NCBI GenBank assembly: GCA_964030475.1 | Contig: CAXIPT010000005.1 | Coordinates: 4,072,650 to 4,136,649, forward strand | Direction: 5' to 3' | Source: Tethya wilhelma | Lineage: Eukaryota; Porifera; Demospongiae; Tethyida; Tethyidae | DNA length: 64,000 bases | Shown here: positions 1 through 19,351 of the stretch, piece after piece | How positions within the stretch are numbered: position 1 is the stretch's first letter | Layout: the number at the start of each line of letters is the position of its first letter | Position numbers and translations under genes: made by a program | Notes under the pieces: model-generated | What the model saw: the letters and a program-made list of their open reading frames with translations, nothing else | What the model was told of the DNA's origin: nothing | The model's database searches: none

Positions 1-233
1 TCAATTTCTGACTGAGTGAGATCCACTGCTGATGCCTTGAGAAGTTCTAAACTGATATCTGGTCTGTTCGTAAACCGTCGCAGGTGGATCAAAAAGAAGA
101 GCCTGTCCTTCAGAAGGTTGCCATTCCCCCACTCCTGGCTGGTCTTGTGCATGAGAGTGGTCTTCCCACATCCAGGACGTCCTTCAAACAAAACCCTCGC
201 ACCATCCTCCAGCCCCTCAAAGACAACGTAATA
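1..233 (-). CDS. NACHT-domain (NLR-like) fragment, partial at window edge
   Basis: Read on the minus strand this is an open frame starting at the ambiguous base 234 and running off the left edge. It encodes a Walker A P-loop (EGRPGCGKTT) followed by about 45 residues including FFLIHLRRF. That order is typical of the start of a NACHT NTPase domain as found in NOD-like receptors, which sense danger signals and oligomerise through this domain. Sponges are known to carry many such genes. Only the first part of the domain is in view, so C-terminal repeats and any N-terminal Death domain cannot be judged. Upstream, the frame continues without a stop into transposase-derived sequence, which is either a fusion or a mis-join at the N. 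Confidence 0.72.
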
Positions 234-234
234 N

Positions 235-1587
235 CTTCTGTGAGATTTCACAGCTGTCTTATACTTCTTCAGTGCGTCGTCCAACTCAGCTCCTTGTGTC
301 AATCCCTCTAAATACCCATACATATAGTGCTTCACTTTTCTAAAATGTTTTTTGATATTTTCAACTGATACGGTATCATACGATAGAGGGATATTCTTCC
401 GTAACGAAGGCAGTGTGTACTTGCAGTGTCCTTTGGTGTATCATTTCAGCTGTGCCCAGACTCTTTCGATTGGATTTAGTTCTGGGTGGAATTTTGGTAG
501 AAATATACATACATGACCCTCTTTAGGGCCGGTAGACGGATTTATCCGCACGCGCGTATTCAACGATCGCGTAATCTGCGATTTTTCGCATTTTTTTATT
601 TTAAGCCATAGCGTTTGAGCTATGAGCTTTAGACTTGCTGTGCAGTTAGGTAAGGAAGCGCACTACTAAAATACCAAGTAAGAGTCAGGTCTGATTAGTG
701 GGAGGGGAGATATAGGCTTTAGAGTTCAAAGGTCGCGATCGCGGCGAGATCGTGACCTTTGGTTTTAAACTCACGTTTTTTTCTTAGTGCTTTGCAGGAG
801 AAGCTTGACGCTAGCTATGGAGGTGCAGGGAGGCTAAGGCTATACCTGCATACAAGCGCTTTTGCAGTGCTGCTCTTCAAGCTGGAAAAAAAGCCTAAAG
901 TATGCAGGTCGTTTGGCGAACTTTGACCCCTTACGTTTTTGCAAGCTTTTAAAGTTAATAAAAGCAAATTTAGAACTAATTTGATATAGCCATGGCTTAG
1001 TACAACCATAGCTAAGCTCAACTAGCTACAAAAGAGAGTGACTAAGGCTAAAGCAAGAACAAAAATGTACAAAAACCTAGGTTAATTAAATATTCATAAA
1101 ATCTAATTAAGTATGCATAATAAATTTAGGCCCTAAAGAGCTTCTTAACTAAGAACTGTTGTATCATATTTTTTTCATTTTTGAAATCAGGATGGTTTCC
1201 TAATACTTTACGCATCCAGTCTCCATTTTTCCCAGCAGTTGAGATTTCTCTTTCTTCAAGGACTTGTTTCATACCCTTTGGTACCTTTTCTCCCCTAACC
1301 ATATTGTACATCTTCTGTTCTTGACCATCATAAATAGTGTCCTTCATGAGCCTTTGTTTGCCTCCAGGTTTCACATTCATGTGGCTTACTTCCAAGGCGT
1401 CGTCAGCCATAGCAGAGTGACAGCTGCTATGGTCGAATACCCATACGTGTCGCCATCCATCAGATTTGGGGTATTTAATCTCTGCAATAACCACGGCCTT
1501 TTCCATTTGAGAAACAAATTTGTTACCAGTCCAATAACCTTCCCTGCTCTCCCCATACTCTAAAAATTCCCGTGCGTATTTTTGAAT
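235..1587 (-). pseudogene. DDE transposase remnant, interrupted by an insertion
   Basis: Two minus-strand blocks belong to one DDE-superfamily transposase. The N-proximal block (1126-1587) carries HVWVFDHSSCH, the usual setting of the second catalytic Asp, followed by NVKPGGKQ. The C-proximal block (235-530) carries LPKFHPELNPIERVWAQLK, the classic setting of the third acidic residue. The break between them (after FLVKK, resuming at EGHVCIF) is a separate element of about 600 bp. A TGA at 441-443 replaces an expected codon just after AQLK, so the gene is dead even without the insertion. The exact transposase subfamily is not certain. The block ends at base 234, directly against the NACHT fragment. 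Confidence 0.75.
519..1140. mobile_element. TIR element inserted in the DDE transposase
   Basis: The insertion is bounded by the 12-base inverted pair CTCTTTAGGGCC (519-530) and its complement (1129-1140), and it splits the transposase reading frame exactly. I see no coding potential inside. It is a small non-autonomous DNA element nested in an older transposon. The precise target-site duplication is unclear because the terminal bases can be assigned either to the element or to the target. Confidence 0.6.
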
Positions 1588-1715
1588 GTTTGATTATGGT
1601 ACTTGTGATATTGAACGATAGAAATCATTCTGGCACTTGGTCAAGGGCAGCAATAATCAGTAAGTGGTTTGTATCGTGCACTTTATTTTTTTAAAAAAAA
1701 TTCTTTGTTGTTTAG

Positions 1716-1880
1716 ATTGTTTGTATTGCGATAACAGTAACTGTTGCTGTACTAATGAAAGAACAAATTGTGTTTATTTCTCATTCCACCTGGATTCTGC
1801 TCTCCACCACCTCCCAACCCTATTTCTACTGTTGCTTATTTTGCTATGTGGAGATGTGGAAAAGAACCCTGGACCTCCAG
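1716..1880 (+). CDS. First visible exon: hydrophobic leader with 2A ribosome-skipping motif
   Basis: The exon encodes a Cys-rich stretch, then a strongly hydrophobic run (LPTLFLLLLILLC), then GDVEKNPGP, which fits the D(V/I)ExNPGP consensus at every position. Such sequences stop peptide-bond formation between Gly and the last Pro while translation continues. In some invertebrate NLR-type proteins N-terminal 2A leaders are known to act as signal sequences when skipping fails. The donor is CCAG|GTAC at 1880/1881 and leaves phase 1. The acceptor at 1714-1715 (TTTAG) is my choice. The open frame extends upstream to 1664 but only through a GTG, so the true initiator Met lies elsewhere. Confidence 0.72.
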
Positions 1881-4800
1881 GTACTAAGTTATTGGCTACG
1901 CTGTTATGTTTTACTGTACTGAAAACAACAGAGCCAGGAAAAACCGTCAAGTCAGTTTATATCACATGAAAATCACAGTTAGAAAATTTTTGAGATCTAT
2001 ATATACAGATAGATGCCAAAGGTTGATTATTGCAAGTAGCTAGTCCAATAACATTGTAACTTTATAACTATATATATTTAATTATTAATTCAACTAATGT
2101 TTAAGGTTCTGCAGGGTATACAGGCAAAATAATTGCGATACCAAACTACATTATTCAGTATTTAACAAAAACTGCTCATTGCACAGTACTGAGACTCCAG
2201 GTCAGCTCACTGTTAGAGTGTTTCGTTCATCATTCCATGGCCACAAAAACTCTTTGCCAGTCCCTAGTTAACATAATAGACATTGTCAAGCTCTGAAAGC
2301 ACTAAAACAAAGATGAACTACAGTAACCTTATCTATGCCTTTGTTTGATGTCAAAAATTTTATAGCCATATCTCCACCATTTTGAACTAAGCTGATACTG
2401 ATTTTGACAAAAAAAAAAAAACTTCGTTTCATTTAATTAAATACCAATGGTATCCCGGAACCTTAATCAACATGCCAAGGGCCAAAACTGAAACGAAGCA
2501 GACTCTACAAACTCCAACACCTATAGACCAAGGACAGGAAAGACAATAAAAATATTCATTATTGTTTGTGAAATTTAATTTAATCTTTATTATTGCTAAC
2601 CAGTATTAAATTTGATGATAACTGCCAAATTAAGAGCATAATTATAAACACATATTAAGGACAACACGTGCAGTACCCTCCTATGCAACTCATCACTAGA
2701 ATACTGATACCAACAAGGCTGATTATATCAGTACATGCGCATGTAATTCCCACCCATCCTGATTGTAGCACATAAAATAAGGGTACTGCATGCAGCAATA
2801 CTAAAAAGGATCTTTATTAATACATTTTTATTTAGTACTCCCTGGGGTGTGTATTAGCGTAAAGCCCTTAGGTTTAAATTGTAATTGCAAACTTCATACA
2901 TATGTACCATATATTCCTTATTATATAGGTCTTACTGATTGTGACATGAAAACTTTGATGGAAAAGCTAAAATCAGTAAAAGTCTTGTGGTATCAAATTG
3001 GAATTCACCTTGGAATCGAAACATTTCACCTTAACACTATTGAAGATCAACATAGTGATATGAGCAGAAGACTCACCCAAACTTTGCAGTACTGGTTGGA
3101 TGGAAATACAAAAGTTTCAATTTGTTGGGAGTCTATTGTTGATGTTCTAAAATCTGTCAACAAACCAATATTAGCAGATCAACTATACAAGGAGTATTGT
3201 TGCACAGGTGTTCAAGGTAATCAGTATAATATGAATAAGTAGATTATATTCATACGTATGTATAGAACAACAACCTACAACCTATTATTCCTTATAGTCT
3301 GACTTTTATTCATGTACAATATGAATATTATGGTTTTAAATGTTTGTGGTTGATGGAATTGTTTTTTTGCACTTCACATATTCATTAATAATTAGCCTGT
3401 GTACCTATAGCCTTGTTTCTGGGCTTTACCCCTCCTTACTTTTGGAAGAAAAAATATTAGATAGGGGAACAAGCACTTGCGACTAACTTTATAATGGTAG
3501 CATTTCTTGTGCATGCTTCTTAAGAATGTTGGGTATACATATTAGTGCTTGTTCCCCTATCTAATATTTTTTCTTCCAAAAGTAAGGAGGGGTAAAGCCC
3601 AGAAACAAGGCTAGGTACACAGGCTAATTATTAATGAATATGTGAACTGCAAAAAAACAATTCCATCAACCACAAACATTTTAAACCATAATATTCATAT
3701 ACGTACATACGTAAAAGGAATAATGGGTTGTAGGTTGTTGTTCTATACATACGTATGAATATGTACCCAACATCTTAAGAAGCATGCACAAGAAATGCTA
3801 CCATGCTACCAATCAAACATGTACACTTAGTAGGCTACAATATATTGTAGCCTACTAAGTGTACATGTATTTATTGATTGGGCATGTACATTTAAGGTTC
3901 CGGGATACGTTGGTATTTAATTATTAACCAAAATGAGAAATTTTTTAGTCAAAATCAGTATCAACTTAGTTCAAAATGGTGGAGATAAAGCGTATGGCCA
4001 TGAAATTTTTGACATCAAACATATATTGGCATAGGAATACTGCTTCATAAAATGAATGAAACACTCGAACAGTGAGCAAACCAAATCTCTGCGTGAGTTG
4101 AAAATCAACAAACCTCACTACTTTTCCCAAGCAAGTACGTGATTTTTTAAAACTCTTCACTCTAGACCCTCACAATTACATGCAGTTGTATTTTTGTATG
4201 TCTACCTTGATTACTCCACTAAGCCTACTGTTACAGATACACTGTTAAAATGATGTGTCACACAACACATTAGGTTCACACAACTGCTTATAAGTTAAGC
4301 GTGCAATGAGCAGCTTTTGTTCAATACTGATTAATGTGCAGTTTGGTCTTAAAATTATTTTACCTTTATCCCAGAACCTTAACTGTCTTGGTGTGTGCAT
4401 AGCACATGCAGAGAGTTATGCTATAGTTATATTTTGTCTACTACCATAGATCGGACAAAATGACTACCGTAATCCTCTGCACGTGCTATGCACGCAGCAA
4501 GGCTTAAAATGGAGTAACCAATTATGTACAGTAGTAGTAGTTTGCAACCAACTACAACATATGCTGTATTTAGTGGTTTCACTATTATAGCGCATGGCTT
4601 CTGTGCATTCCAGCATCACCCTAAGCTTTCTTTTCCTTTCTTTCTCCTATGACCCCCTTATAAGGTGACATATATTTACATGTAGATACAATTATTTGCA
4701 GTTTTTCCCCCCACAAAATTTCCTGTTTTGCGGTTTGTTGAAAATGATAAGTCATTCATGACGTACTGTAGTATACATTCCTGCCATGTTCAATCCTTAC

Positions 4801-7800
4801 CGCTCTCAACCTCTCCGCACTAGAAAAATTGTCATTGATGTTATAGCATAGCAGTAGGGGAGGAGCCGGTACTATAGCATAAAGTGCATACATGGTTTAG
4901 ACTACCACACAGTGAAGTGGTGTACATCGTTACATCACTACACATAGTGTGGTGAAGTGAGGGCTATAGTATACCAACTTTATAATCATTACAAGTAAAA
5001 AAAAAACATTGGAAATGTATAATGAGACATAGGAATGGCCAAATCGTAAAAAGAAAGCAAACAAGATGGAAACAAGATGGATCGGCTGTTTGAGTGTGTG
5101 TGGATTACTTCCCGTGTGGGCTGCATGTAGTACTCTCTTCCCATGTCAAGTCCCTCATGTTGCCCAGAGGAATAATTCTTTACACACTCAAATAGCCATT
5201 CCATCTTGTTTGCTTTCTTTTTACGATTTGGCCATTCCTATGTCTCATTACATTTCCAATTTTTTTTTCATTTTTTTCATAATTTTATGAATCACATTTG
5301 AGTTTGTGTGTATATGGTAGTTTCTTGTACACTATCAGCACAGATATTCTAGCTTATAAATATAATCTATGCTATCAGTAAAGTGAAGCATCTCAGTAGG
5401 TTGGAGCTGTATCTAACAAAATTTACTTGCTTGCTCATCTTCTTATAATGACAACTAGTATAGTAGTCTATTTACCTCCTAAATATTGAAGACTGAAAGG
5501 TTACAGAGACTTCAGCACAACCAGAAACCTTCAGGTAAACACATGCTTGCCAGTTGCTTCTGCTCATACATAAATACATGCTGTAGTTATAGGACTGGAT
5601 CGTCAAGAAAGAAAGCAAAAGACTAACATGAGTCAAAATCAAAAGGATTGGATCGTCAATTTAGAAAACTACTTTTAGGTTTGGTCCAGAAATGCAAGTT
5701 AGCAATGTAAACCGTTGCTAGAAGTCGGCCAAGAGACTCTTCAAGCCATAGCAGCTAGTAAAATGTGTTAATTTTGTTTAGTTTCTCTACCAGAGTCCAT
5801 TTATCAGACAGGATCGGATCATCAATTCTAAAAACTACTTTTAGGTTTGCCGTCAGTTGGCCAAAAATGCCATTTAGGAATGGAATCTGTCATTAAAAGT
5901 CGCTCCAGAGACTCTTCGAGCCATACATAGCAATAAAATCTGCTTACAAGCTTTGTTGAACTGTTCTAGTTCTCAGAAAGGTGTGTCGACACCACCACAC
6001 CACCATCACCACCACCACACCACCACCACCACCACCACTTGCATAATTTTTCCCCGTATACAGCAATCCTAGCCTCGTTTTGCTCGGAATAACTTGTCTA
6101 TCTGGAAAAGGGTCACCAATTTGATTTCCAAAGTAGCTAATGAATTAGTAATGAGTATAGAACTTGAATGAATGGCTGCTATATGGAGAAGGTGCTTTCT
6201 TGTATCTAGCGACTCAGCTAGAGAGATGAATAACCGATGCACAAAGCACGTGAAGACAAAGAAACCAAGTTTATTCGTTCAAGAATCAGCTTCTGAAAGT
6301 AAGCGGTGTTTGAGAAGTCGTTCCAAGATAGAAGAAGAAGAAGAAGAAGAAGAAGAAGAAGAAGAAGAAGAAGAAGAAGAAGAAGAAGAAGAAGAAGAAG
6401 AAGAAGAAGAAGAAGAAAAAGAAGAAGAAAATTGGAGGTTTGGCATATTTTAGTCTGTTGCTTTAATGATGGTTTTAGGCCATGTTTATGGTCTCATTAG
6501 AAAGAGAATGAGCTAAATAGTAGCTTTAGAAGAAGAACACACATAAGTACACATACCTTACCACAAGTTATTATTCCACACCTGATTTGGGTGTCATATG
6601 TTGCATGGCTTCTGACTTATAAGCCTCTGAAATTTGCCATTTTTGATCATTTCTTGCCGCTTAATAGCAAATAACTTTTTTTCTGATTGTTTCCAGCTAC
6701 TGAGACTGGTACCATTGTACTCGGTAAAAAATTTCGCTTCAAATGATATACTTGAAGTTGGTGGTCATTCGGTAGCAGGTTAAAGGTCATTTTTTGAAGA
6801 CGTTACTAAAAAAAGACGTCTTTTTTTTTCCCCGCAATTTTTTTACAATATTATCTGCAAAAATTGTTCCTTATTATGTACAAGTTTGGTAATGGGATCT
6901 AAATGGGATCAGAAGATACAGGACTAAACATACACTTTTGTTCAAAATCCATGAAAGAAAAATACTTATAAATTAAAATACTCTACTCAGGCATATGTTT
7001 TGACCTGTATCTCCTGATCCCATATAGATCCCATCACCAAACTTATACAAAATAAAGGACGATTTTTGTAGATTACATTGAGTGAAAATTACGCAAAAAA
7101 AAGACGTCTTTTTTAGTAACGCTCAATTATAGATTTAAAATATAACCTTTGACCTGCTAGCGAGTGACCATCAACTTCAAGTATATCATCTGAAGCAAAA
7201 TTTCATGCCGAGTACAATGGTATCAGTCTTGGCAGCTAAAAACAATCAGAGCATTAGTTATTTGCTAATAAATGGTGAAATGTCATCAAAAAATGGCAAA
7301 TTTCGGACGCTTATAAGTCAGAAGCCATGTAACATATGACACCCAAATCAGGTGTGGGATAATAACTTGTGGTAAGGTATGTGTACCTCAAGTTTTGTTG
7401 AATTCCATGAGGTTGCTCATTTTTTTGTGTTGACTTGGCATGGAATTGCTCAGCTGTTTCTTTTCATGTGCCACTTAGAAACAAGGAAACAAGCCCACAT
7501 ATATGACCTGACAAACAAAAACCTGACGTTTGGGAATTTCTGCGAATTTTGAGTTAGCTATTCCACGTATATCTAGGCCTTCCCAGGAAGCACATATCAA
7601 AATTTGATGCGCATAGCTATAGTAGTTTTCTATATATAGCGCTCTTGCAAGCAGCCCTGCCTCCACTCATGGCTTCCTAGAAAACCAGTTGTAAAGTTGT
7701 TGCTAGGTAAACTGTGGGCGGTCCGTATACTCTCCGTATATCATAATTCTGAGCGAAGCAAGGCTATACCCGGGCTGCATTGAGAATAGTGGTGGTGGTG

Positions 7801-10800
7801 GTGGTGGTGGTGGTAATGTTTGGGCAAAATTGTGAAAAGTCGCTCTAAGTTGCTCTAGCTTCAAGTTCGGATGGAATAACTTCATGTTCTCACTTACCTC
7901 GAATTAAGGTAGGACTGTCTATGTTGTATGAATCAAATTTCTACTTCTAGCTGGTTTTCTGGACGCCAGCACGAATCACCTGATTTTAGTTTTCAAAACT
8001 GACGACCCAAGACAAAATTCTAACTTCTCTTTACTTCAATTTTGCTTAAATAACTGCTAATATAGACTTGCTATGGATGTAAAACTCTTTGAGTTTGCTT
8101 TATAAGTCAGCTTTCTGCTTCTAGCTGGCTTTCTGGATGTAAGTCCAAAATTAGCTGAATTACATTTTCGAAATTGACGACCCTGACTTTGTTCTAAGTA
8201 CTTGAAAACAAAAGAAAAAGGTGTGCACGCTGGTAAAGTGGTAGATTCTAGGTAGAATAAGTTTTAGGAACTAAGGTAAGCCTCAGAATAACCTGTATGC
8301 GATCGCATACAGGGTGAGGCCACACCCGGCATGAGCAGATGTGCTGCTCTATGTTGGCGCTTGAATTAGGCAAGCACATCAGAAGCTTTAGTTTATCTAT
8401 TTGTGCAGCCAACAAAATTCTGTAAACAAAAGCCTATAAAACAGAAATAACACTGAACAATAATTCATTTTTAGTGGCAGCTGCCTATCTCATTAATATT
8501 CGCTACGGTCTGTTGCACAGCATAGCAACTGTTCTCCGTGTTGCAACTGAATAGAAAAGAACAAGGCTGATATTACCATCTAGCCTCATTCCCAGGCTCC
8601 TCCTTCACGAATATTTTATTCAAAAGTAAGGAAGGAAAGAGCAAGGTACCTGTAGTCACAAAAGTGACCGTACAGGGTAGACGTCTGGTACACGTGAGTC
8701 CACTCAGTATTACGCGCTTTATCTAAAATGCGTCACACACATGTTCTAGTCAGTTGATGTGAGCAAAAATTTTAGCGTATCTACGAGCTCTGTGAGAGCT
8801 AGACGTAGAAGACGATAGGAATAGACAAGAAAAAAGCAACCAGTAGTCTCCGACGATTGTCTAAAAAGCAAAAGATAAATGGCAGTCTCCTGAATCTTTG
8901 GTTCTGTGTCCAGTCTTGATCTTTCAGTCTGACCAAACCAAGATACAAAACAAAACTGACGATCACAAACGCTGTTTGGGAAGTACATCTTAATTCTTAG
9001 CACACAAGAAATGACTTTAAACAAGCACATGGTAGGGTTTTTTTTAAGCATTCTTCTGTTCTGTTCTTTTCGGGGTCGCTCCCAGGAAACTTTCACTAGC
9101 TAACTAACCTGAATTACGTAAAATAGTACGTCACTCACATGACTACTGGTACCAGGCTCTCTTCTTCCTTATTTTTGAAGAAAAATATTCGTGAAGGAAG
9201 AGCCTAAAGTCCATCTGGTTTGAGAATGCTGCCGGAAGTGAATTAATGAGATTTATAACCATACTTTTTCTATGGGACAAAATAGCTAACTTTTGACTGG
9301 TAAGGTGTAGGAAGCTGAAAAAGCAACCAAAAGGACGGGGAGATCGAGCGCTTTCCAATGGTGCTTGCATGAAATTTTAAAATCGGTTGGATATTTAGAA
9401 AGTTATTCAAGTTTTTCTACCGGCATTCTCAAACCAGATGGACTTTAGTAACGAGGCTAATTACCGTCTATATCTCTGCAATAGAAGCAGCATCCACCCC
9501 TCAAATTTTGCATATGGCATGCTGAAATCTATCCGTGTAGTAAAAAAAATTTGTGCAAAAACGTGAATTAAACTAAAACTGCAGTTTACTTGAAAAACAA
9601 TAATTTCCGAAACGTCAGGTATTCGCTTGACACGTCACATATACGTCACTTCCCTAAAAACAGGCAGTTGCTCTATAGTAACATGACATCAAGTGTGTGT
9701 GTGTTTTGTTGAAAAAACAGTGAGAGAAGGAGCGTGTAGCTATAGTAGCTGTGCCTGAAAAATGTTTCTCTGTTGCCAGAAAACTTTCTATGTTACCCGA
9801 AAACTTGTCAAATTGAGTCAGAAAGTTAGTATCTGTGATTGTTCCATGGTAGAAATCTCAGTGTTGTTGAGACGGCAAACTTTCTCTGTGTTCTTTTGGT
9901 GGATCATCTAGACAGAAATTAGTTCGCTAACCATTGTAGCTACACAACTCAACCTTTCTTCATGGCCCATGCAATAAGTAATACTTATTGCAAGAGAAGG
10001 ATGGCCAAATACGATGTGTGTGTGNGGGGGAGGGAAGAAGTGCTAGTAGCACTCAGCTTGAAATAATCCTAATGCATTTGCATTGTTATCATTGTGTTCA
10101 TTGTTGATTTTATATAGAGAAATCATTGGAGTCTAACATTCAAGCTGCACAAGCAAAGCAAAAAGTTTCTAATCTTGTGGAGACCACAAAGTGCTATTCA
10201 TTTCCTAATTTAGTTCTGAGTGGCCTTTGTGATTCTGAACGTGAAATTTTCCAAGCCAGACTTTATGCAGACTCAGTTAGTATGATGAGTAAATTCCAAA
10301 ATCTTTTAGATTCAACCATGGAATCTTTGGAAGCACGTCAAGTACCTGTAAGAAAAGTTTTGACACGAATCATGGGATTTGGAGCATTTGAGCAAGTTTA
10401 TCCAGATCCACCTGATTATGATCAACCTATACTAAAGCATGAACTGAGCAGATTACGATCTGAAAGTAGTACATCATTTGATGATATCCAATTTGTCATA
10501 TCAAAATACTCATCTTTCTTCAACTACCACATTGTTGAGCAGATAGTAAAAGCTTTAGGTACACCAAAAGATCGATTGGAGTTTGAAGAATATGAACGTG
10601 CTTTTGTGGATTATGCCAAAAGAAAAGTATACGAATGCCCATCAGAATTTGGAAATGTGGATAATACCAACCAAGCCAAAATTTTTGCTAAGCTTGATGA
10701 CAGCTTTGACAGTTGCACTCTAAGTCATCTGAAACTTTTCAATGGCAAGCTATCCGAACTGTTTAACTTAGCTGGAGGAGCGCTGCAGCTTGTATCTGTG

Positions 10801-13194: not shown

Positions 13195-13228
<34 letters not shown>

Positions 13229-16200
13229 GCCAACAGCTTAATTAAATATATCGACAAATAAGTTTTTTTGGTATGGAAAAGTCTCAGAAACTCGCTTAAC
13301 GATATAGGTAGAAATGTATTAGCGAGTCTTCTCTGAACTATACAAAATAAAGCCAATTTAGCTCCAAATAATACCACTACTGCTATCAATCAATCTTCTC
13401 AATACTTTTACGATGTGAGTTCAAGGTACACTAATCGAATAGTGACATCAAAATTTACGGATGTTACACGATAGTATACAAGATTACCAGAATTCTGGTA
13501 ATTATGCGCATGTGCAACAGTGTGTACCAGGCCCTCTTTTTGGTCTACACAAACAGAACAGGAACATTATATTGAGGGCTCTGTACCTTAAAGGCGCAGT
13601 CGCACGGAAGTAAACTTACGTGATGTAATGAAGCCGTATTTTGCACTTAATTGCTGTGCACAGAATTTAGACCAGCGCTAATATGAGTCTCCGCGCTTTT
13701 CAAATACAGCCAACGCTCATGAAAAGCTCTAGTGTTACTCTTCGCTAGTTTGCTAGCTTACCCAGCTGCTTTTTTTCCTAACTGCACCGGTTTTCAACGC
13801 TATATCTACACGTTCTCGATCGCAAACACGTAGACAAAAAATACCCAGACTGCAGCTTGCGCACTTCCACTATGGCGCCATGCAAGCTGAGAAAACACTT
13901 TCTTTTCATTCAACAAGAGCCAAGAACACAAGACTCACAAGAAAAAACGAGAACTAAAACTGGACAAAACCGGTTTACACTAAACAAGTCAAACGAGTTT
14001 GTTCACTAACCTAATTGTGATCATGGTGGTTAGGATTTACTATTGATTTTTGTGATCATAACAAATACATTGCTACATTATCATATTATAATATATACTT
14101 AAGTCCAATGTTCATTCATCACATATATAGTCAACTAAAAATAGGAATCGTGACGTATTTGGTCCAAAATTGTGCATGTTTGCATACTTCAGTGCTCCGT
14201 GTACTGTGCATGTTACTACTCGCGTAATAGTAACTATATGTGGCCAGCTGTTATTACAATTACATGTATTAGCTTGCTAGCCTCATTCCCAGGCTCCCTC
14301 CCACCGGAAATTTAGTGCGAGAGAAAAGGGAAGAGGGAGCCTGGTATCAAAAATCACGTGGGGTAGAAGGGTGGTGGAAGGGTGATTAGTGAGCGTGGGC
14401 ATGGCGATTGATATCTTAGCCTGCCAACGCTTTAAATTGGAGTTCAACTGAGTTCAACAGTGGAAAACAAACGGGTGGTAGAAAGAGTATTGTTAGGCTG
14501 TCTATGGCTTGAAGTCTGCATCATTTATACTGTCCAAAATTAGCATTGACAACCTGGCAATTTGAATGCTCACACGAGCTGATTTTCTATCAAGTATTGG
14601 TAGTGTAGAGCATCAGTATATTACACTGTAACTGTGTATAGACTGTTGATAGACAATATAATACTAGCAACTAGCTTTCTTTACAATATAGTAGCTGCTC
14701 ATAGCGCTCAGCGATCACGAATATTGCTTCTGTGCACAGAACCAAGAGTTTGACATCATTATTCTAACCGCCCCACCCACGCATTTATTCTTTAGCAACA
14801 ATTGACGTCATACACGTGATTTTAGATACCAGGCTCCCTCTTTCTTTGCGACATAAGCGCACTTAAATTGTAAGGTTTCTGGTCATGTTTGATATTTTTG
14901 GTAACTTCCTGTCTGCTATATAGTAACACAGTGCCTTTAAAGTGACAAATTTTTGTGAGTACTAACATATATGTTTAAAATTTTTACGAATGGCTCCAAA
15001 AGTGCAAAAATTCGGTCATGTAAAAATTTATTTTTTTTATTTTCTTCTTCTTCTTCTTCTTCTATCTTCTCACGCCATAATGATATCTCAGAGACAATTC
15101 ACTTTCAGAAGCTGATTCTCAGTGAACGAATAAACTTAGAAACTTTTCTTCACGTGCTTTTGGTATTCTGTGTCTCTCGTTGGGTGCACCATGGCTAGAT
15201 ACAAGGCGAAAAGCACCTTCTCCGTATGGCAGCCATTCATTTCTATGCTCATGTATAATTCATTAGCTACCGTTGAAGATTGAAATTGATGACCCCAGCT
15301 TTTTTCAGCTACAAGTTTGCGTTATTTGGAATCTGAATATTTGCTGCCTTCCTGCTTGCTTTACCTGCTTGAAGATTTCTGGTTGTGCTGAATTCTCTCG
15401 GTCTGGTTTGTGTAGTTATTTGGACACAACTTATTGCTTGATCTTCAAAAGCTGGAAGAATTGATCTTTTAACATAACTAGTAACTGAGATGCCCAGGGG
15501 CCTGAGGGCAGTGTATAACAAAGTAGTCCCTTCACCTCCTAAATATTAAAGACTGAAAGATTACAGCATGCAAAGGTAGTAAATTTTGTTAGATACAGCT
15601 CGAAGTTAGCATGCTGTGACGCCGCTGAAATTTCAAAAAGCCGCCGCTTTTATGAATAAATTAAGATACACAGACAGACACTGTCAGACATGTCACATCA
15701 AGTGCAGACAAAACAATTACTGTTACTATAATCATTATAGTAGTACTTGTGCTCAGATTATATATACCTTGCATATCTTAATTTGCTAATTAAGTCCTTC
15801 AAACTCACATAAATTTTTCCTCTCAGGACACTGACCAAGAATTCCCCGATCCAGGTTATGATGATGAACAACAAGTAGAAACATTAAAAGCAACTAATCT
15901 TGTATTGCACAATGCATCATTCTCTGGGAAACTAGAACAAATTAAGGACTTGGTTGAAACACGTGCATTGAATCCATTAAGTAAGGATCATCATGGAAAC
16001 ACTGCTCTTCATTATGCAGCCAAAGGCAACCAACTAAAAGTATTGAAATATTTTGTCCAAAGACTCAACGAAAAAGGCTGTAATCACCTTACATTTAATA
16101 AAAATGGTGAATCACCCTTACATGTTGCTGCTCGAAGAGGGTACATTGATATAGTGAAGTATTTGATATTAAAAGAACAACTAGACCCCCTGTGCCAAGA

Positions 16201-19200
16201 CCACAAGTTTGACCCTACTCCACTCCACTCCAGTTGTTTAAGCGATAACGTAGATCTTGTTTGCTTTCTAGTAAATGAAGCTAAGTGCTGTGCGATTATT
16301 GAAGATATTGCAGAAATTGCTACAAAGCATGGTCGTAGGCTGGTCCATTTTGCTTCAATTGGTGGCAACATAAAGATTATGAAGTACATAATTTCCGAGT
16401 TGAATTGCCTTCCTAATACCCAAGATTATAATGATTTCACACCACTTCATATTGCAGCAAAATATGGACATTTTCACCTGGTTAAGTATTTGGTTAATAG
16501 TTGTAATTGTAACCCAATGCAGCCAGATAAAAATAAAAAAACTCCTCTCCTCCTTGCTGCTTCAAGTGGACATTTAGAGATCGTTAAATTTATTATTGCA
16601 AAAGGTGGAGTTCCTGAAGCAAGAAACTCAAAAGGAAAGTCCTCACTTCATTTAGCTGCTCAATATGGTCACGTGGATATAGTTGACTTCCTAATCACCA
16701 GACTTAACTGTGATGCTAATGCTGTATGTAGTATGGGGAGAACTCCTCTTCATTATGCTGCTCAAAGTGGTCATATATCTGTAACAAAGAGCTTAGTTGA
16801 TGTCCACAATTCTGACCCCTTGCATCAAGACGATGACATGGTCACACCACTTCATCTGGCTGCTTCAAAAGGTCATCTAAAAGTTGTCAAATATTTTATC
16901 TCTAAAAAGAATGCAGATAGAATGTGTAAAACTGAAAATGAAAACACTCCTCTTCATTTAGCTGCTCATTCTGGCCATATTGATACAGTTAGGTTTTTGA
17001 TTTCTGTAGAATGTGACCCTAACTGTCATAACAGTTCCAGAGCAACTCCCCTTCACTATGCAGCACTTGGAGGTCACCTCCATGTTGCAAAATATTTGAT
17101 TTATGATTGTCACTGCAATCCAACACAACAAGATGAAGCAGAAAATACCCCACTTCATTTTGCAGCATCCAGAGGACATTTGAATGTGGTCAAGTTTCTG
17201 GTAAGTTTCAAAGAAGTGGATCCTATTTGTAAGGGTACTGATGGAAATTCTTCGCTTCATCTGGCTGCTCTTTATGGGAACATTGACATAGTTAGATTTT
17301 TAGTATCTGTGGTCAAATGTGATCCAAATTGTAAGAACAGCTTAGGCCGAACACCACTTCATTCTGCTGCTTGTAATGGTCACATACAGGTTGTTACATA
17401 CTTAATAAATGAATGCAATTGTGAACCTTCTCAATCAGATTTGAATGAATATGTACCTCTCCACAATGCAGCATCAGAAGGACACATTGATGTGGTTAAA
17501 TTTCTCATTGCTAATGAAGGAGTCGATCCCGAGTGCAGAAACAACAGTGGGAACACCCCTCTTGATTTAGCTGCATTTAGTGGCCATCTGGAAATAGTGA
17601 AATTTCTAATCTCCAGGTCAAAATGTCATGATTCTAGTACAAAGCTGTTAAGAAGACCACTCTGTTTTGCTACTCAAGGTGGTCATTTCCATGTTGTAAA
17701 ACACTTGATTACTGAACACAATTGTGACCCTTCACAAAAAGATAAAAACATGTTTTCACTTCTACATCATGCTAGTTTGAATGGACATATTGATCTTGTC
17801 AACTATTTTACAGTGGAAACACACTTGAATCCATGGTGTACGACTAAAGAAGGATTGTCCTCACTTCATTTAGCTGCTCAATATGGTCACATGGATATAG
17901 TTGACTTCCTAATCACCAGGCTTAACTGTGATGCTAATGCTGTATGTAGTATGGGGAGAACTCCTCTTCATTATGCTGCTCAAAGTGGTCATATATCTGT
18001 AACAAAGAGCTTAGTTGATGTCCACAATTCTGACCCCTTGCATCAAGACGATGACATGGTCACACCACTTCATCTGGCTGCTTCAAAAGGTCATCTAAAA
18101 GTTGTCAAATATTTTATCTCTAAAAGGAATGCAGATGGAATGTGTAAAACTGATGATGAAAACACTCCTCTTCACTTAGCCGCTCGCTTTGGCCACCTTC
18201 CAGTGGTTAAATACTTAACCAAAGAGTTGAAGTGCGACCCAAACTGTCAAAGCAGTTCTGAAAGAACACCTCTTCATTATGCAGCTCTAGGTGGTGAACT
18301 CCGTGTGGTAGAATACCTGATTACTAAGTGCAACTGCGATCCTTCACAACCAGATGAAGAGCAGCTCACACCACTTCATTTTGCAGCTATTGAAGGACAC
18401 TTAAATGTCATAAAACTCTTAATAACGTTGGGTCATCCAGATAATCGAACAAATAGAGGATACACAGCTCTTGATGTAGCTTCTCTGTATGGACATAAAG
18501 ATGTTGTTGAATTTTTGATTACTAAAACTAATACTAAACTGAGTCTTCATCCTGCAGCACTAGGGGGACACATAGAAATCGTTGAAAGTCTGATTAATCA
18601 ATATGAGTGTGATCCTTCAGAGCGGGATCAATTGAGACTAACACCATTACATCTTGCAGCTTCAAAAGGACACCTTAGCGTTGTCAAATATCTTACCCTA
18701 CAAGAGAGCGTAAACTCACAATGTATTGATATTGATGGGAACACACCTCTCCATCTAGCTGCTCTTTGTGGGCACATTGCAGTTGTTAAGTTTCTAATTT
18801 CAGAGATGAAATGTGACCCTTATTGCACGAATATTTTAGGAAGAACACCACTTCACGATGCTGCTGATGGTGGCCATCTTGACATTGTGCAGTACCTATC
18901 AGAAGTGGACTCAAGCCACTGTTATATTGACACAGATGACTGTCAAGTAGCTACTCAATATTGTAGTGACATTGCACCAGATAAAGTTCTAATATCAACA
19001 GTAACAAAGTTTAACTTACTGAATTGTCAAGACAGCGATGGAAGAACACCCCTTCACTATGCTGCTTCTAGTGGCCACATTCATGTGGTAACATACTTAA
19101 TAGATAATTGCAATTGCGATCCATCACCATCAGATGTGAATGGCTATTTACCCCTTCATAGTGCAGCTTTTAATGGACAGCTCGGTGTTGTTGAATATCT

Positions 19201-19351
19201 TATTGTTGAAAAACATGTTAATCCAATTTCTTGTACCTCTAGTGGAATTACTCCACAAAAATTAGCAGAAAACAATAAACATGTAACAATTGTCAAGTTT
19301 TTGACCAAGATTATAGACTTGGGTGCACATTTTGTTGATTATGATTGCTGA
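1716..19351 (+). CDS. 2A-leader / Death domain / novel domain / ankyrin-repeat protein (gene model)
   Basis: Four exons are proposed: 1716-1880, 2929-3216, 10118-11064 and 15827-19351. Donors and acceptors are GT/AG and phases agree at every junction (1/1, 1/1, 0/0), which supports one gene despite introns of 6.9 and 4.8 kb full of transposons. The first exon ends two codons after a 2A motif, so ribosome skipping would release the hydrophobic leader and start the main protein with Pro-Pro-Gly. The body would be a Death domain (adaptor-type homotypic interaction), an unrecognised domain of about 315 residues, and about 33 ankyrin repeats. No ATG lies in frame in the first exon, so an upstream start exon is missing from the model. 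It is inferred to be an intracellular signalling or recognition protein. Linkage of exons needs transcript support. Confidence 0.62.
2101..2466. mobile_element. TTAA-flanked MITE (piggyBac-like), copy 1
   Basis: TTAA at 2101-2104 and 2463-2466 flank inverted ends GGTTCTGCAGGGTAT / ATCCCGGAACC. A second member at 3892-4383 lies in the opposite orientation; internal stretches such as the GCTCATTGCAC region match its complement. No ORF is present. TTAA target duplication is the signature of piggyBac-type transposases, so this is a likely non-autonomous derivative. It sits in the intron between the 2A and Death exons; 2467-2928 shows nothing further. Confidence 0.7.
2929..3216 (+). CDS. Death-domain exon
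   Basis: The exon starts after TATATAG and ends at TTCAAG|GTAATC, phase 1 at both ends; an alternative donor at 3207 keeps the same phase. The product of about 95 residues has Death-fold features: a WYQIGIHLGI-type helix 1-2 segment, RLTQTLQYWL, then SICWESIVDVLKSV and a final LADQL helix. Death domains build homotypic receptor/adaptor complexes in apoptosis and innate signalling. It sits directly behind the 2A leader, so it would be the N-terminal domain of the released protein. Confidence 0.82.
3250..3806. repeat. Long foldback (inverted-repeat) element
   Basis: About 230 bp (3250-3480) reappear as the inverted complement at 3540-3770, including the GGGCTTTACCCCTCC segment and the TTGTTTTTTTGCA segment. 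Part of the loop (GCATGCTTCTTAAGA) is itself repeated inverted at 3772-3806, so the whole unit could form a near-continuous cruciform. Non-coding, probably a foldback transposon. Confidence 0.8.
3807..3882. repeat. Short perfect-type palindrome
   Basis: CCAATCAA..TGTACACTTAGTAGGCTACAATATA is followed at once by its inverted complement (TTGTAGCCTACTAAGTGTACA..TTGATTGG), arms of about 35 bp with almost no loop. It abuts the foldback element on one side and the TTAA element on the other. Confidence 0.75.
3892..4383. mobile_element. TTAA-flanked MITE (piggyBac-like), copy 2
   Basis: TTAA 3892-3895 and 4380-4383 bracket ends GGTTCCGGGATAC / TATCCCAGAACC. It is related in inverse orientation to the element at 2101-2466 but is longer because of extra internal sequence. 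The closing TTAA is shared with the next small element. Confidence 0.72.
4380..4506. mobile_element. Small TTAA-flanked hairpin element
   Basis: Between TTAA at 4380-4383 and 4503-4506 the arms read CTTGGTGTGTGCATAGCACA and its approximate complement ending TGCTATGCACGCAGCAAG. It is directly adjacent to the preceding TTAA element. The stretch 4507-5008 shows no gene or clear repeat. Confidence 0.5.
5009..5259. mobile_element. MITE with about 60-bp terminal inverted repeats
   Basis: Starts TTGGAAATGTATAATGAGAC and ends with the near-complement GTCTCATTACATTTCCAA; the arms continue through GCCAAATCGTAAAAAGAAAG and the AACAAGATGG motif. Members or relatives with the same GGAATGGCCAAATCG theme occur near 11409-11606, 50790-51035 and 52600-52745. 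Non-coding. Nothing is evident in 5260-5640. Confidence 0.78.
5646..5950 (+). repeat. Two-copy direct repeat
   Basis: A block containing AAAACTACTTTTAGGTTTG and later AGAGACTCTTC(A/G)AGCCATA occurs at about 5655-5755 and again at about 5830-5925 with clear divergence. The start of each copy contains GGATCGTCAAT or GGATCATCAAT. No coding content. Origin unknown, perhaps an old tandem duplication. Confidence 0.6.
5985..6440 (-). repeat. Dispersed repeat copy with CAC and expanded GAA microsatellites
   Basis: 5990-6040 is a (CAC)n/(CCA)n tract. From about 6130 to 6330 the sequence is the inverted relative of 15060-15260 (AAGCACGTGAAGA, AATCAGCTTCTGAAAGT). A pure GAA tract of roughly 30 units follows at about 6331-6427, where the copy near 15044 has only about seven. 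The open frames through the tract (poly-Glu, poly-Arg) are artefacts of the repeat. Confidence 0.7.
6549..7386. mobile_element. 838-bp palindromic foldback element
   Basis: The left end CACATACCTTACCACAAGTT is answered at the right end by ACTTGTGGTAAGGTATGTG, and matching continues inward over roughly 400 bp per arm, including the GACACCCAAATCAGG and AAAAAGACGTCTTTTT segments. There is no coding region. This is one of the largest near-complete palindromes in the window. Confidence 0.82.
7387..8581. other. Intronic sequence, no gene seen
   Basis: Only a short (GGT)n tract at about 7789-7815 and a loose repeat of an AGCTGGTTTTCTGGACG phrase (near 7950 and 8125) stand out. No ORF with protein-like composition. 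Confidence 0.5.
8582..9204. mobile_element. TIR element, 'CCCAGGCTCC' family
   Basis: The left end (AGCCTCATTCCCAGGCTCC, then TCCTTCACGAATATTTT) is mirrored at the right end (AAAAATATTCGTGAAGGA followed by AGAGCC). The 623-bp unit has no clear transposase. A related pair of ends lies at 14279-14860. The right end directly abuts the next MITE at 9204. Confidence 0.65.
9204..9449. mobile_element. MITE with CTAAAGTCCATCTGGTTTGA ends, copy 1
   Basis: About 246 bp with inverted ends CTAAAGTCCATCTGGTTTGA and TCAAACCAGATGGACTTTAG. A second copy of nearly the same size (45450-45676) sits in an intron 36 kb away. The TA step at the borders suggests a TA target duplication. Region 9450-10117 shows no gene; base 10025 is ambiguous. 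Confidence 0.8.
10118..11064 (+). CDS. Exon encoding an unrecognised, probably sponge-specific domain
   Basis: An open exon from an ATATAG acceptor (phase 1) to TTTAAG|GTAAAA (phase 0), about 315 residues. I do not recognise a catalogued family. Visible landmarks are an N-terminal helical part, a central VEQIVKALGT / ERAFVDYAKRKVYECP segment, a SHLKLFNGKLSELFNL stretch, and a terminal beta-like part (LVSVKLGCINLTFQVP, SQLGVVRLCSGSYIF). The last 45 residues are acidic and low complexity. It lies between Death and ankyrin exons with matching phases, so it is likely the middle module of that protein. It may act as a linker or regulatory fold; no catalytic motif is apparent. Confidence 0.7.
11409..11606. 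mobile_element. MITE related to the 5009-5259 family
   Basis: Inverted ends GTTAGAAATGGAATAAACATAGG and CCTATGTTTGTATTACATTTCTAA (only part is perfect), with CCAAATCG near the left arm and CGATTTGGCCATTCC in the right arm. A partial tandem copy of the right end follows to about 11650. No gene is seen from 11650 to about 12250. Confidence 0.68.
12254..13190 (+). mobile_element. Non-autonomous composite element, plus orientation
   Basis: Begins with the CATACGGTAGTACATATAG / AGGAATGGGCCGACTGTCCC end seen also at 27777 and, inverted, near 24454. It continues through the ACTTACTTACTTACTTCC stretch and an AAGCTTTTTGTAGGGACTAA segment, and ends in a long inverted repeat (arms about 12860-12990 and 13140-13190) built on GTGCCGAA / ACATGACTACTTCATTTTT. 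The same order of parts recurs in two other places in the window, implying one transposon family with a hairpin-like 3' region. No ORF. A short (AAT)n tract follows at 13197-13224. Confidence 0.6.
13225..14278. other. Intronic sequence without a recognisable gene
   Basis: No coding frame with protein character. 14150-14270 resembles 34240-34360 (TGACGTATTT, GCGTAATAGTA, CAGCTGTTATTACAA), so it is part of an old dispersed repeat. Confidence 0.45.
14279..14860. mobile_element. TIR element, 'CCCAGGCTCC' family, second copy
   Basis: Starts AGCCTCATTCCCAGGCTCC like 8582. GAGCCTGGTATCAAAAATCACGTG (14336 onward, read in parts) is mirrored by CACGTGATTTTAGATACCAGG at about 14815-14836. The internal sequence has no transposase. 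Confidence 0.55.
15044..15480 (+). repeat. Dispersed repeat copy (TTC tract plus conserved flank)
   Basis: A (TTC)n tract of about seven units is followed by AAGCTGATTCTCAGTGAACG, TTCACGTGCTTTT and AGCACCTTCTCC. The same order is found, diverged, at 51660-51960 and, inverted with a large GAA expansion, at about 6130-6427. The short ORFs here have no protein-like character. Confidence 0.65.
15827..19351 (+). CDS. Ankyrin-repeat exon (about 33 repeats)
   Basis: One uninterrupted exon from CTCTCAG to a TGA stop, 1174 residues. From about residue 35 it is tandem ankyrin repeats of roughly 33 residues, recognisable by TPLHLAA / GH(L)xVVKYLI cores, with a short degenerate end. The opening 30 residues are acidic (DTDQEFPDPGYDDEQQ). 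Ankyrin arrays are protein-binding scaffolds. Several repeats carry Cys in the YLI..C.CDP position, giving an unusually Cys-rich array. Two blocks of about 325 bp are almost identical, showing recent internal duplication or conversion. The single long exon suggests retroposition or expansion without introns. It could in principle be its own gene, but no initiator Met lies near the exon start apart from that at residue 37. Confidence 0.88.
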   Translation, partial: DTDQEFPDPGYDDEQQVETLKATNLVLHNASFSGKLEQIKDLVETRALNPLSKDHHGNTALHYAAKGNQLKVLKYFVQRLNEKGCNHLTFNKNGESPLHVAARRGYIDIVKYLILKEQLDPLCQDHKFDPTPLHSSCLSDNVDLVCFLVNEAKCCAIIEDIAEIATKHGRRLVHFASIGGNIKIMKYIISELNCLPNTQDYNDFTPLHIAAKYGHFHLVKYLVNSCNCNPMQPDKNKKTPLLLAASSGHLEIVKFIIAKGGVPEARNSKGKSSLHLAAQYGHVDIVDFLITRLNCDANAVCSMGRTPLHYAAQSGHISVTKSLVDVHNSDPLHQDDDMVTPLHLAASKGHLKVVKYFISKKNADRMCKTENENTPLHLAAHSGHIDTVRFLISVECDPNCHNSSRATPLHYAALGGHLHVAKYLIYDCHCNPTQQDEAENTPLHFAASRGHLNVVKFLVSFKEVDPICKGTDGNSSLHLAALYGNIDIVRFLVSVVKCDPNCKNSLGRTPLHSAACNGHIQVVTYLINECNCEPSQSDLNEYVPLHNAASEGHIDVVKFLIANEGVDPECRNNSGNTPLDLAAFSGHLEIVKFLISRSKCHDSSTKLLRRPLCFATQGGHFHVVKHLITEHNCDPSQKDKNMFSLLHHASLNGHIDLVNYFTVETHLNPWCTTKEGLSSLHLAAQYGHMDIVDFLITRLNCDANAVCSMGRTPLHYAAQSGHISVTKSLVDVHNSDPLHQDDDMVTPLHLAASKGHLKVVKYFISKRNADGMCKTDDENTPLHLAARFGHLPVVKYLTKELKCDPNCQSSSERTPLHYAALGGELRVVEYLITKCNCDPSQPDEEQLTPLHFAAIEGHLNVIKLLITLGHPDNRTNRGYTALDVASLYGHKDVVEFLITKTNTKLSLHPAALGGHIEIVESLINQYECDPSERDQLRLTPLHLAASKGHLSVVKYLTLQESVNSQCIDIDGNTPLHLAALCGHIAVVKFLISEMKCDPYCTNILGRTPLHDAADGGHLDIVQYLSEVDSSHCYIDTDDCQVATQYCSDIAPDKVLISTVTKFNLLNCQDSDGRTPLHYAASSGHIHVVTYLIDNCNCDPSPSDVNGYLPLHSAAFNGQLGVVEYLIVEKHVNPISCTSSGITPQKLAENNKHVTIVKFLTKIIDLGAHFVDYDC
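16641..18183 (+). repeat. Near-identical intragenic duplicate within the ankyrin array
   Basis: Bases 16641 to about 16965 recur at 17859 to about 18183 (offset 1218 bp = 406 codons) with only a handful of substitutions, such as CACCAGA/CACCAGG and AAAAAGA/AAAAGGA. Each copy covers about three ankyrin repeats. The other repeats of the array are clearly diverged, so this pair arose recently by unequal exchange or gene conversion and kept the frame. Confidence 0.85.

What the first reader, a model, noticed from the sequence alone, without database searches (positions are those of the whole stretch)
1716..3216. A cellular 2A ribosome-skipping leader spliced onto a Death domain
The first exon carries LLLLILLCGDVEKNPGP, a full match to the D(V/I)ExNPGP rule, and a donor two codons later joins in phase to a Death-domain exon. 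Skipping would release a Death-domain protein beginning Pro-Pro-Gly into the cytosol. Failure of skipping would leave the hydrophobic leader attached and send the same protein to the secretory route. One gene could thus give two locations from one mRNA. Dual targeting by 2A leaders has been described for invertebrate NLR-type proteins. A Death-novel-ankyrin cargo is, as far as I know, not described.
Basis: partly seen in the sequence, partly recalled or inferred. Interest (0 to 1): 0.88.

Follow-up and report, generated by a model that had tools for sequence, protein, structure and literature searches.

The report
2A-split Death-domain gene family
In an animal genome that is probably a sponge's, a Death-domain gene carries a 2A "ribosome-skipping" motif just ahead of its Death domain, as do dozens of related genes in the same genome, where the motif would let one mRNA yield a predicted membrane protein and a separate, likely cytosolic, Death-domain signalling protein.

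Summary
The motif is real: DVEKNPGP at window 1853-1876, predicted to splice in phase to a Death-domain exon. The genome has 77 D(hydrophobic)ExNPGP sites (reversed-pattern control 0) and 12 NVERNPGP variants. Of these 89, 42 have a Death match within 5 kb downstream on the same strand (about 0.3 expected), so it is a family trait.

(1) The 2A exon is not shown to be a first exon: it has no in-frame ATG and an upstream acceptor, and in relatives it is an internal phase 1-1 exon behind two conserved exons, the first starting MPISAEQWR, each with a predicted membrane helix. The unit is thus a likely natural two-product polyprotein rather than a plain signal leader. (2) The cargo is not new in kind: the "novel" exon resembles a TRADD-like N-terminal domain, and Death/TRADD-N/ankyrin proteins are published as a large expansion in the sponge Amphimedon.

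What looks new is the 2A membrane module across a Death-domain repertoire; one 2025 survey of eukaryotic 2As could not be read. Skipping, splicing and localisation are untested. The window copy lacks visible start exons.

The parts
1714..1715 (+). predicted 3' splice site (AG) before the 2A exon; phase 1
   Evidence: sequence; matching place and phase in paralogues L034-L036 (L034 and L035 aligned)
1716..1880 (+). 2A exon, predicted internal, phase 1-1, no in-frame ATG
1796..1852 (+). hydrophobic Leu-rich stretch ending CG (SALHHLPTLFLLLLILLCG)
   Evidence: Kyte-Doolittle 1.89 over 19 residues; fits the published L-rich StopGo ending (A/S/C)G
1853..1876 (+). StopGo/2A octapeptide DVEKNPGP; predicted skip between codons 1871-1873 (G) and 1874-1876 (P)
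   Evidence: activity untested
1881..1882 (+). predicted 5' splice site (GT), phase 1
   Evidence: a phase-1 GT lies within 4 codons in 44 of 47 held sites
2929..3216 (+). Death-domain exon, phase 1-1 (alternative in-phase donor after 3207)
   Evidence: 122 matches in the genome; 31 of 72 in alignment A1 match PF20694, the window member not; model m1ed8da1da9b8
15827..19351 (+). ankyrin-repeat exon with stop codon at 19349-19351
   Evidence: Pfam Ank; in-phase join

Best explanation
The window's gene belongs to a large paralogous family in which an exon coding a StopGo/2A peptide, likely active, sits just before a Death-domain exon, so that one mRNA would give two proteins: an upstream predicted membrane protein ending in ...NPG and a downstream, likely cytosolic Death/TRADD-N-like/ankyrin protein starting with Pro. 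In complete paralogues the upstream product is predicted to be about 245 residues (one gene joined): a cytosolic start (MPISAEQWR), two membrane helices, a basic cytosolic stretch and a hydrophobic tail that is itself the 2A. The ribosome would reach the ER by the first helices, release the membrane protein at NPG, and go on to make the adaptor from the same mRNA, roughly one for one. When skipping fails, the Death protein would stay joined to the membrane protein. The downstream part would act as a death/immune adaptor: Death for homotypic assembly, TRADD-N-like for protein contact, ankyrin repeats for target binding. Shown here: motif, open frames, exon phases, family-wide linkage. Predicted: domain folds, splicing. 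Inferred: skipping, topology, function.
For: Linkage: 32 of 77 canonical sites have a Death match within 5 kb downstream on the same strand, and 28 of the 30 best Death matches have a 2A upstream. 10 of 12 variant (NVERNPGP) sites do as well. Naive expectation for 89 sites is 0.26. By ORF reading, 13 further loci of 21 examined have a Death-like frame after the 2A. Module: 23 of 28 strong exon-A matches are followed by a canonical 2A within 6 kb. In one gene the three-exon upstream product joins in phase with introns of 66 and 69 bases; K+R counts of 5, 1 and 10 in the first three extramembrane segments fit N-in, loop out, in. Exon rule: 44 of 47 unique sites have a phase-1 GT within 4 codons of NPGP (random window positions 0.23), 29 of 47 a GTRAG (random 0.007). 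Selection: Death exon, window versus the three C8 paralogues L034-L036, pN 0.22-0.25 and pS 0.66-0.78; TRADD-N exon versus L064 and L065, pN 0.22-0.23 and pS 0.69-0.72. Cargo: Death fold, TRADD-like_N in relatives, ankyrin.
Against: No transcript, protein or translation assay. Exons A and B were not found for the window gene: not in window 1-1715, not in the readable part of the 4 kb to its left (part of that flank reads N), and no match on contig C5. This absence is weak, since the query also missed the exon-A remnant of the paralogue L034 that one search shows. A transposase-like frame lies on the opposite strand upstream (1126-1593). So the window copy may be 5'-truncated or use another start. 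5 of 28 exon-A copies have no canonical 2A in range; stretches after two of them (L084, 3.0 kb; L085, 3.5 kb) show none. Of 144 Death matches, 41 have a 2A upstream; most weaker ones do not. Residues upstream of a 2A can inhibit skipping when they engage the translocon (PMC2978324, abstract and passages), so an ER-docked ribosome might mostly make the fusion. Two sequons also fall in the stretch I call cytosolic. The window's own middle exon has no Pfam hit, and a whole-genome PF20694 search found one match only. Within the C8 trio the 2A exon as a whole is weakly constrained (dN/dS 0.8-1.2).
Confidence: 0.6

Rival explanations
1. Dual-targeting leader as in sea-urchin NLRs: the hydrophobic 2A is the N-terminal signal; skipping gives a cytosolic Death protein, and failure sends the fusion to the secretory route.
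For: Works experimentally for a sea-urchin NLR leader, and about 35% (85/241) of those NLRs carry 2A at the N-terminus or in the N-terminal region, in proteins described as DEATH-NACHT-LRR (PMC4981915, part 1 of section 2 read). Frames like short Met-started leaders exist in this genome: L007, L008, L012. Hydrophobic stretch present in the window.
Against: The window exon has no in-frame ATG and an upstream acceptor; in relatives two coding exons with hydrophobic segments precede it.
Confidence: 0.2
2. The window copy is a 5'-truncated relic of the family: its start exons were lost to transposon insertion and the rest is no longer properly expressed.
For: No exon A or B found; transposon-like sequence upstream; a 7 kb intron between Death and TRADD-N exons, against a gap of about 190 bases between the same two matches in a C8 paralogue.
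Against: 1,640 codons without a stop and canonical splice sites; protein-level constraint against paralogues saturated at silent sites, although a recent loss would not show there.
Confidence: 0.15
3. The 2A exon is a retroelement-derived fragment that was exonised and spread with the Death genes but does not skip.
For: Non-LTR retrotransposons carry 2A-like sequences (stated in PMC4981915); two of the 32 loci read (L006, L013) look, by eye, like retroelement frames.
Against: The (A/S/C)G before the octapeptide is kept in all 47 held sites, with varied octapeptide codons; 12 sites use a p12 = N variant, and p12 = N is reported active above 95% in natural contexts (PMC12846837, section 14).
Confidence: 0.05

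Closest known systems
2A-like signal sequences of Strongylocentrotus purpuratus NLRs (Roulston et al. 2016, PMC4981915)
   Same: cellular StopGo motif in the N-terminal region of proteins with an N-terminal DEATH domain, in an expanded immune gene family
   Different: there an N-terminal signal leader on NACHT-LRR proteins; here an internal phase 1-1 exon behind a predicted two-helix membrane unit, on Death/TRADD-N-like/ankyrin and other Death proteins, with no NACHT hit in the frames scanned
Death/TRADD-N lineage-specific expansions of Amphimedon (Kaur et al. 2021, PMC8195603)
   Same: 1-3 Death-like domains, then TRADD-N, then a variable C-terminus, most often ankyrin repeats or SH3-LRR (passages)
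   Different: term search of that paper's main text finds no NPGP and no 'skipping'; the upstream membrane exons are not in the passages I saw
Crassostrea virginica TRADD-N proteins (same paper)
   Same: membrane helix upstream of a Death-fold (DED) and TRADD-N module
   Different: a single-chain protein with an extracellular Cys-rich domain; here a 2A lies at the join
Viral StopGo/2A elements, L-rich motifs (Li et al. 2026, PMC12846837)
   Same: core (D/G/C/N)(V/I)ExNPGP and L-rich upstream part ending (A/S/C)G
   Different: cellular, exonic, in a host gene family; that paper calls cellular use never or only rare (section 14)

Membership tests
StopGo/2A element | core octapeptide (D/G/C/N)(V/I)ExNPGP | tested here: met
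   DVEKNPGP at 1853-1876; rule from the abstract
StopGo/2A element | permissive upstream context (L-rich, ending (A/S/C)G for p12 = D) | tested here: met
   ...LLLLILLCG; 47 of 47 held sites end (A/S/C)G; rule
StopGo/2A element | peptide bond skipped in translation | not testable with these tools
   needs in vitro translation
Sea-urchin-type 2A signal leader | start codon followed directly by the hydrophobic 2A (N-terminal leader) | tested here: not met
   no ATG in the frame, acceptor upstream; that paper also counts 2As 'within the N-terminal region'
Sea-urchin-type 2A signal leader | NACHT-LRR cargo | tested here: not met
   the predicted gene has Death, TRADD-N-like and ankyrin exons; no NACHT or LRR among Pfam hits at 0.001
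Sea-urchin-type 2A signal leader | unskipped form enters the secretory route | not testable with these tools
   needs localisation experiments
Death domain | Pfam PF00531 at curated cut-off | tested here: not met
   20.2 vs 22.6 bits; relative P0016 (phmmer E 8.7e-12 to the window Death exon among 71 proteins) passes with 25.4
Death domain | six-helix death fold | tested here: met
TRADD-N | PF20694 match of the window exon | tested here: not met
   no hit at E 0.01; 31 of 72 aligned proteins hit, best 1.5e-6
TRADD-N | RRM-like alpha/beta sandwich | tested here: inconclusive
Death/TRADD-N/ankyrin expansion (Kaur et al.) | order Death, TRADD-N, ankyrin | tested here: met
   if the TRADD-N call is accepted; same order in L079

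The most novel reading that the evidence does not exclude
A whole death-adaptor repertoire of an animal is built as natural 2A polyproteins. A shuffling-ready phase-1 exon cassette codes a small membrane protein that ends in StopGo, and it is spliced in front of many different Death-domain cargos, so that every receptor-side membrane subunit and its cytosolic Death adaptor are born one for one from the same ER-bound ribosome. Skipping efficiency would set how much adaptor stays tethered.
Probability: 0.4. Interest if true: 0.86.

Novelty: new variant of a known kind. Interest (0 to 1): 0.7.

Why it matters
StopGo is still described as largely viral and never or only rarely cellular (PMC12846837). 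Here one animal genome codes at least 89 such sites, of which 42 have a Death match within 5 kb downstream, with a repeated exon design. If skipping is confirmed, animals use a built-in 2A polyprotein strategy for cell-death signalling, and the question of what cellular 2As are for becomes testable with one translation assay and one localisation assay.

Tried and rejected
Rejected: the motif as chance (77 against 0 in the reversed control; Death linkage 32 of 77 in the right order and strand, against 6 pairs upstream or antisense). Rejected: the 2A exon as a proven first exon. Rejected: the middle exon as an undescribed kind of domain.

Led nowhere: homologue searches with exon A (none) and with the Death exon (none); Foldseek on the middle exon (no match at E 0.001; the VIA rows are mid-scoring, and a fold not listed is not excluded); a PF20694 search of the genome (one match). 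The species could not be named; 'sponge' is inferred from the published Amphimedon parallel. Rao et al. 2025 (Cell Rep 44:115822), a survey of eukaryotic and viral 2As, and Odon et al. 2013 are not held; I know them here only from a reference list and one discussion passage, and sponge sites may already be listed there. Literature searches on 2A; on TRADD-N. I saw their listings (titles and starts of abstracts); beyond the sea-urchin work no listed title or abstract start joined 2A with Death-domain genes.

Counts to read with care. One search scored 150 of 343 candidates, so its 144 Death matches are a lower bound. The script took 142 of the 144 rows (the last two, far from any 2A, were not typed). 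One search took only the 9 Death rows lying near variant sites. One search took 40 of 144 Death rows, 37 of 122 middle-exon rows, 28 of 33 exon-A rows and 21 of 21 exon-B rows; by those lists 33 of 77 sites have no family exon in range. One search used 47 unique sites in held loci, out of 77. Of 21 loci read, 13 gave a new Death-like frame, L011 was already counted, and 7 (L005, L012, L015, L016, L030, L031, L032) showed none within about 1.5 kb. Pfam on 10 ORFs from 9 of the 13 gave Death for 5 (one over the cut-off); the second Death-like type rests on hhalign (probability 96.1, E 3.5e-9).

Full report
WHAT WAS CHECKED. The window lies on contig C5 of a 124.6 Mb, 204-contig genome held without a name. 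The octapeptide DVEKNPGP is at window 1853-1876, preceded by ...TLFLLLLILLCG. A donor stands one codon plus one base after the last Pro codon, and joining 1880 to 2929 reads NPGP-PGLTDCDMK... in phase; with 3216 to 10118 and 11064 to 15827 the predicted frame runs 1,640 codons to a stop at 19349-19351.

IS IT CHANCE? The degenerate DNA pattern for D(hydrophobic)ExNPGP gives 77 matches in the genome and none for the reversed pattern. A second pattern that requires the preceding Gly and frees position 12 gives 88 matches, 12 of them new, all NVERNPGP, for 89 in all. Features the first pattern did not fix agree: in 47 of 47 unique sites lying in held loci the residue before the octapeptide is Gly and the one before that is Ala, Ser or Cys, as published for the L-rich class of StopGo elements (PMC12846837, passage). 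In 44 of 47 a phase-1 GT follows within four codons (random window positions 0.23), and 29 of 47 have GTRAG (random 0.007). Many of these sites are close paralogues, so they are not independent. The 2A thus sits, as a rule, at the very end of an exon.

LINKAGE TO DEATH DOMAINS. With the window's Death exon as query the genome gives 144 matches (150 of 343 candidates scored). 32 of the 77 canonical sites have one within 5 kb downstream on the same strand, and 28 of the 30 best Death matches have a 2A upstream; pairs in the wrong order or on the wrong strand number 6. 10 of the 12 variant sites have a Death match too. Together 42 of 89 sites, against a naive expectation of 0.26. Seen from the other side, 41 of the 144 Death matches have a 2A upstream; most weaker matches do not. 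Reading 21 further loci showed a Death-like frame after the 2A in 13 that were not already counted, and none in 7. Of 10 such frames scanned, 5 matched Pfam Death, one above its cut-off; the other type is related by profile (probability 96.1). Not all 77 sites were examined; two of the 32 loci read (L006, L013) look by eye like retroelement frames.

THE 2A EXON IS INTERNAL. The frame carrying the window's motif has no ATG. Three C8 paralogues have an acceptor at the matching place and phase. Upstream of many paralogues lie two more conserved coding exons. Exon A starts MPISAEQWR..TG..N and holds a hydrophobic segment; exon B holds another and about 50 further residues. 28 strong exon-A matches exist, and 23 of them are followed by a canonical 2A within 6 kb; exon B has 21 matches. 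Of the five exon-A copies without one, stretches after two were read and showed no motif; L085 has a Death-like frame (by eye) about 3 kb on. In the C3:1011 kb gene all joins are phase 1, with introns of 66 and 69 bases, and give a 245-residue upstream product with hydrophobic peaks at residues 52, 108 and 216; the charge balance suits a cytosolic start, an outside loop with three sequons, and a basic cytosolic stretch before the 2A tail, although two sequons also fall in that stretch. Some genes keep a related start with WR in a single exon with the 2A: L010/L077 and L059 (WRARIG) and L014 (WRVRIA). Others show only a short Met-started frame: L007, L008, L012. In the window gene exons A and B were not found. 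Its true start is unknown.

HOW IT LIKELY WORKS. Inference: helices in exons A and B dock the ribosome at the ER; at NPG the membrane protein is released; elongation resumes at Pro and makes the adaptor, which has no signal of its own that I could see and stays cytosolic. Unskipped chains would keep the adaptor on the membrane protein. Work on artificial polyproteins warns that translocon contact can inhibit skipping (PMC2978324; abstract and passages), so the tethered fraction may be sizeable or regulated. This differs from the sea-urchin leader, where the 2A is itself the signal (PMC4981915; part 1 of section 2 read), though both place a 2A ahead of a DEATH domain.

NOVELTY. Cellular 2A on DEATH-containing NLRs is known in the sea urchin; the Death/TRADD-N/ankyrin cargo is known in Amphimedon. 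I found no paper joining them, or describing the upstream membrane exons, in the listings of the searches named under Tried and rejected, but Rao et al. 2025 could not be read. I rate it a new variant of a known kind.

Noticed in passing
window 1-300, - strand: a P-loop-like stretch (VLFEGRPGCGKTTLMHKTSQEW), read by eye as part of a NACHT-type NTPase, divergent to the 2A gene; not profiled
   Followed up: no
window 1126-1593, - strand: 155-residue open frame read by eye as a DDE-type transposase piece; no Pfam hit at 0.001
   Followed up: partly
L020 and L015 (C3:213687 with 214384; C2:1357688 with 1358531): two 2A-coding frames in a row about 0.7-0.85 kb apart on the same strand, the first D-type, the second NVERNPGP: alternative or double skipping
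   Followed up: partly
L077:1310-4712: single-exon leader MPLWSIQEWRARIG...DIETNPGP, then Death and a 972-residue frame with a ZU5 match and a COR-A match below cut-off, then further Death-like frames by eye
   Followed up: partly
C1:17.9, 18.7 and 21.4 Mb; C2:2.53 Mb; C9:3.79 Mb: a subfamily using position-12 Asn (GNVERNPGP); 10 of 12 sites lie before Death matches
   Followed up: yes
window 3400-3720: inverted-repeat element inside the intron after the Death exon (by eye)
   Followed up: no
L085 (C8:3356800-3360300): exon-A copy with no 2A motif found within 3.5 kb, yet a Death-like frame (by eye) about 3 kb on: a decayed or 2A-less member
   Followed up: partly
L078:4295-6001: frame with a protein-kinase match just downstream of a 2A/Death/TRADD-N/ankyrin gene
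   Followed up: partly
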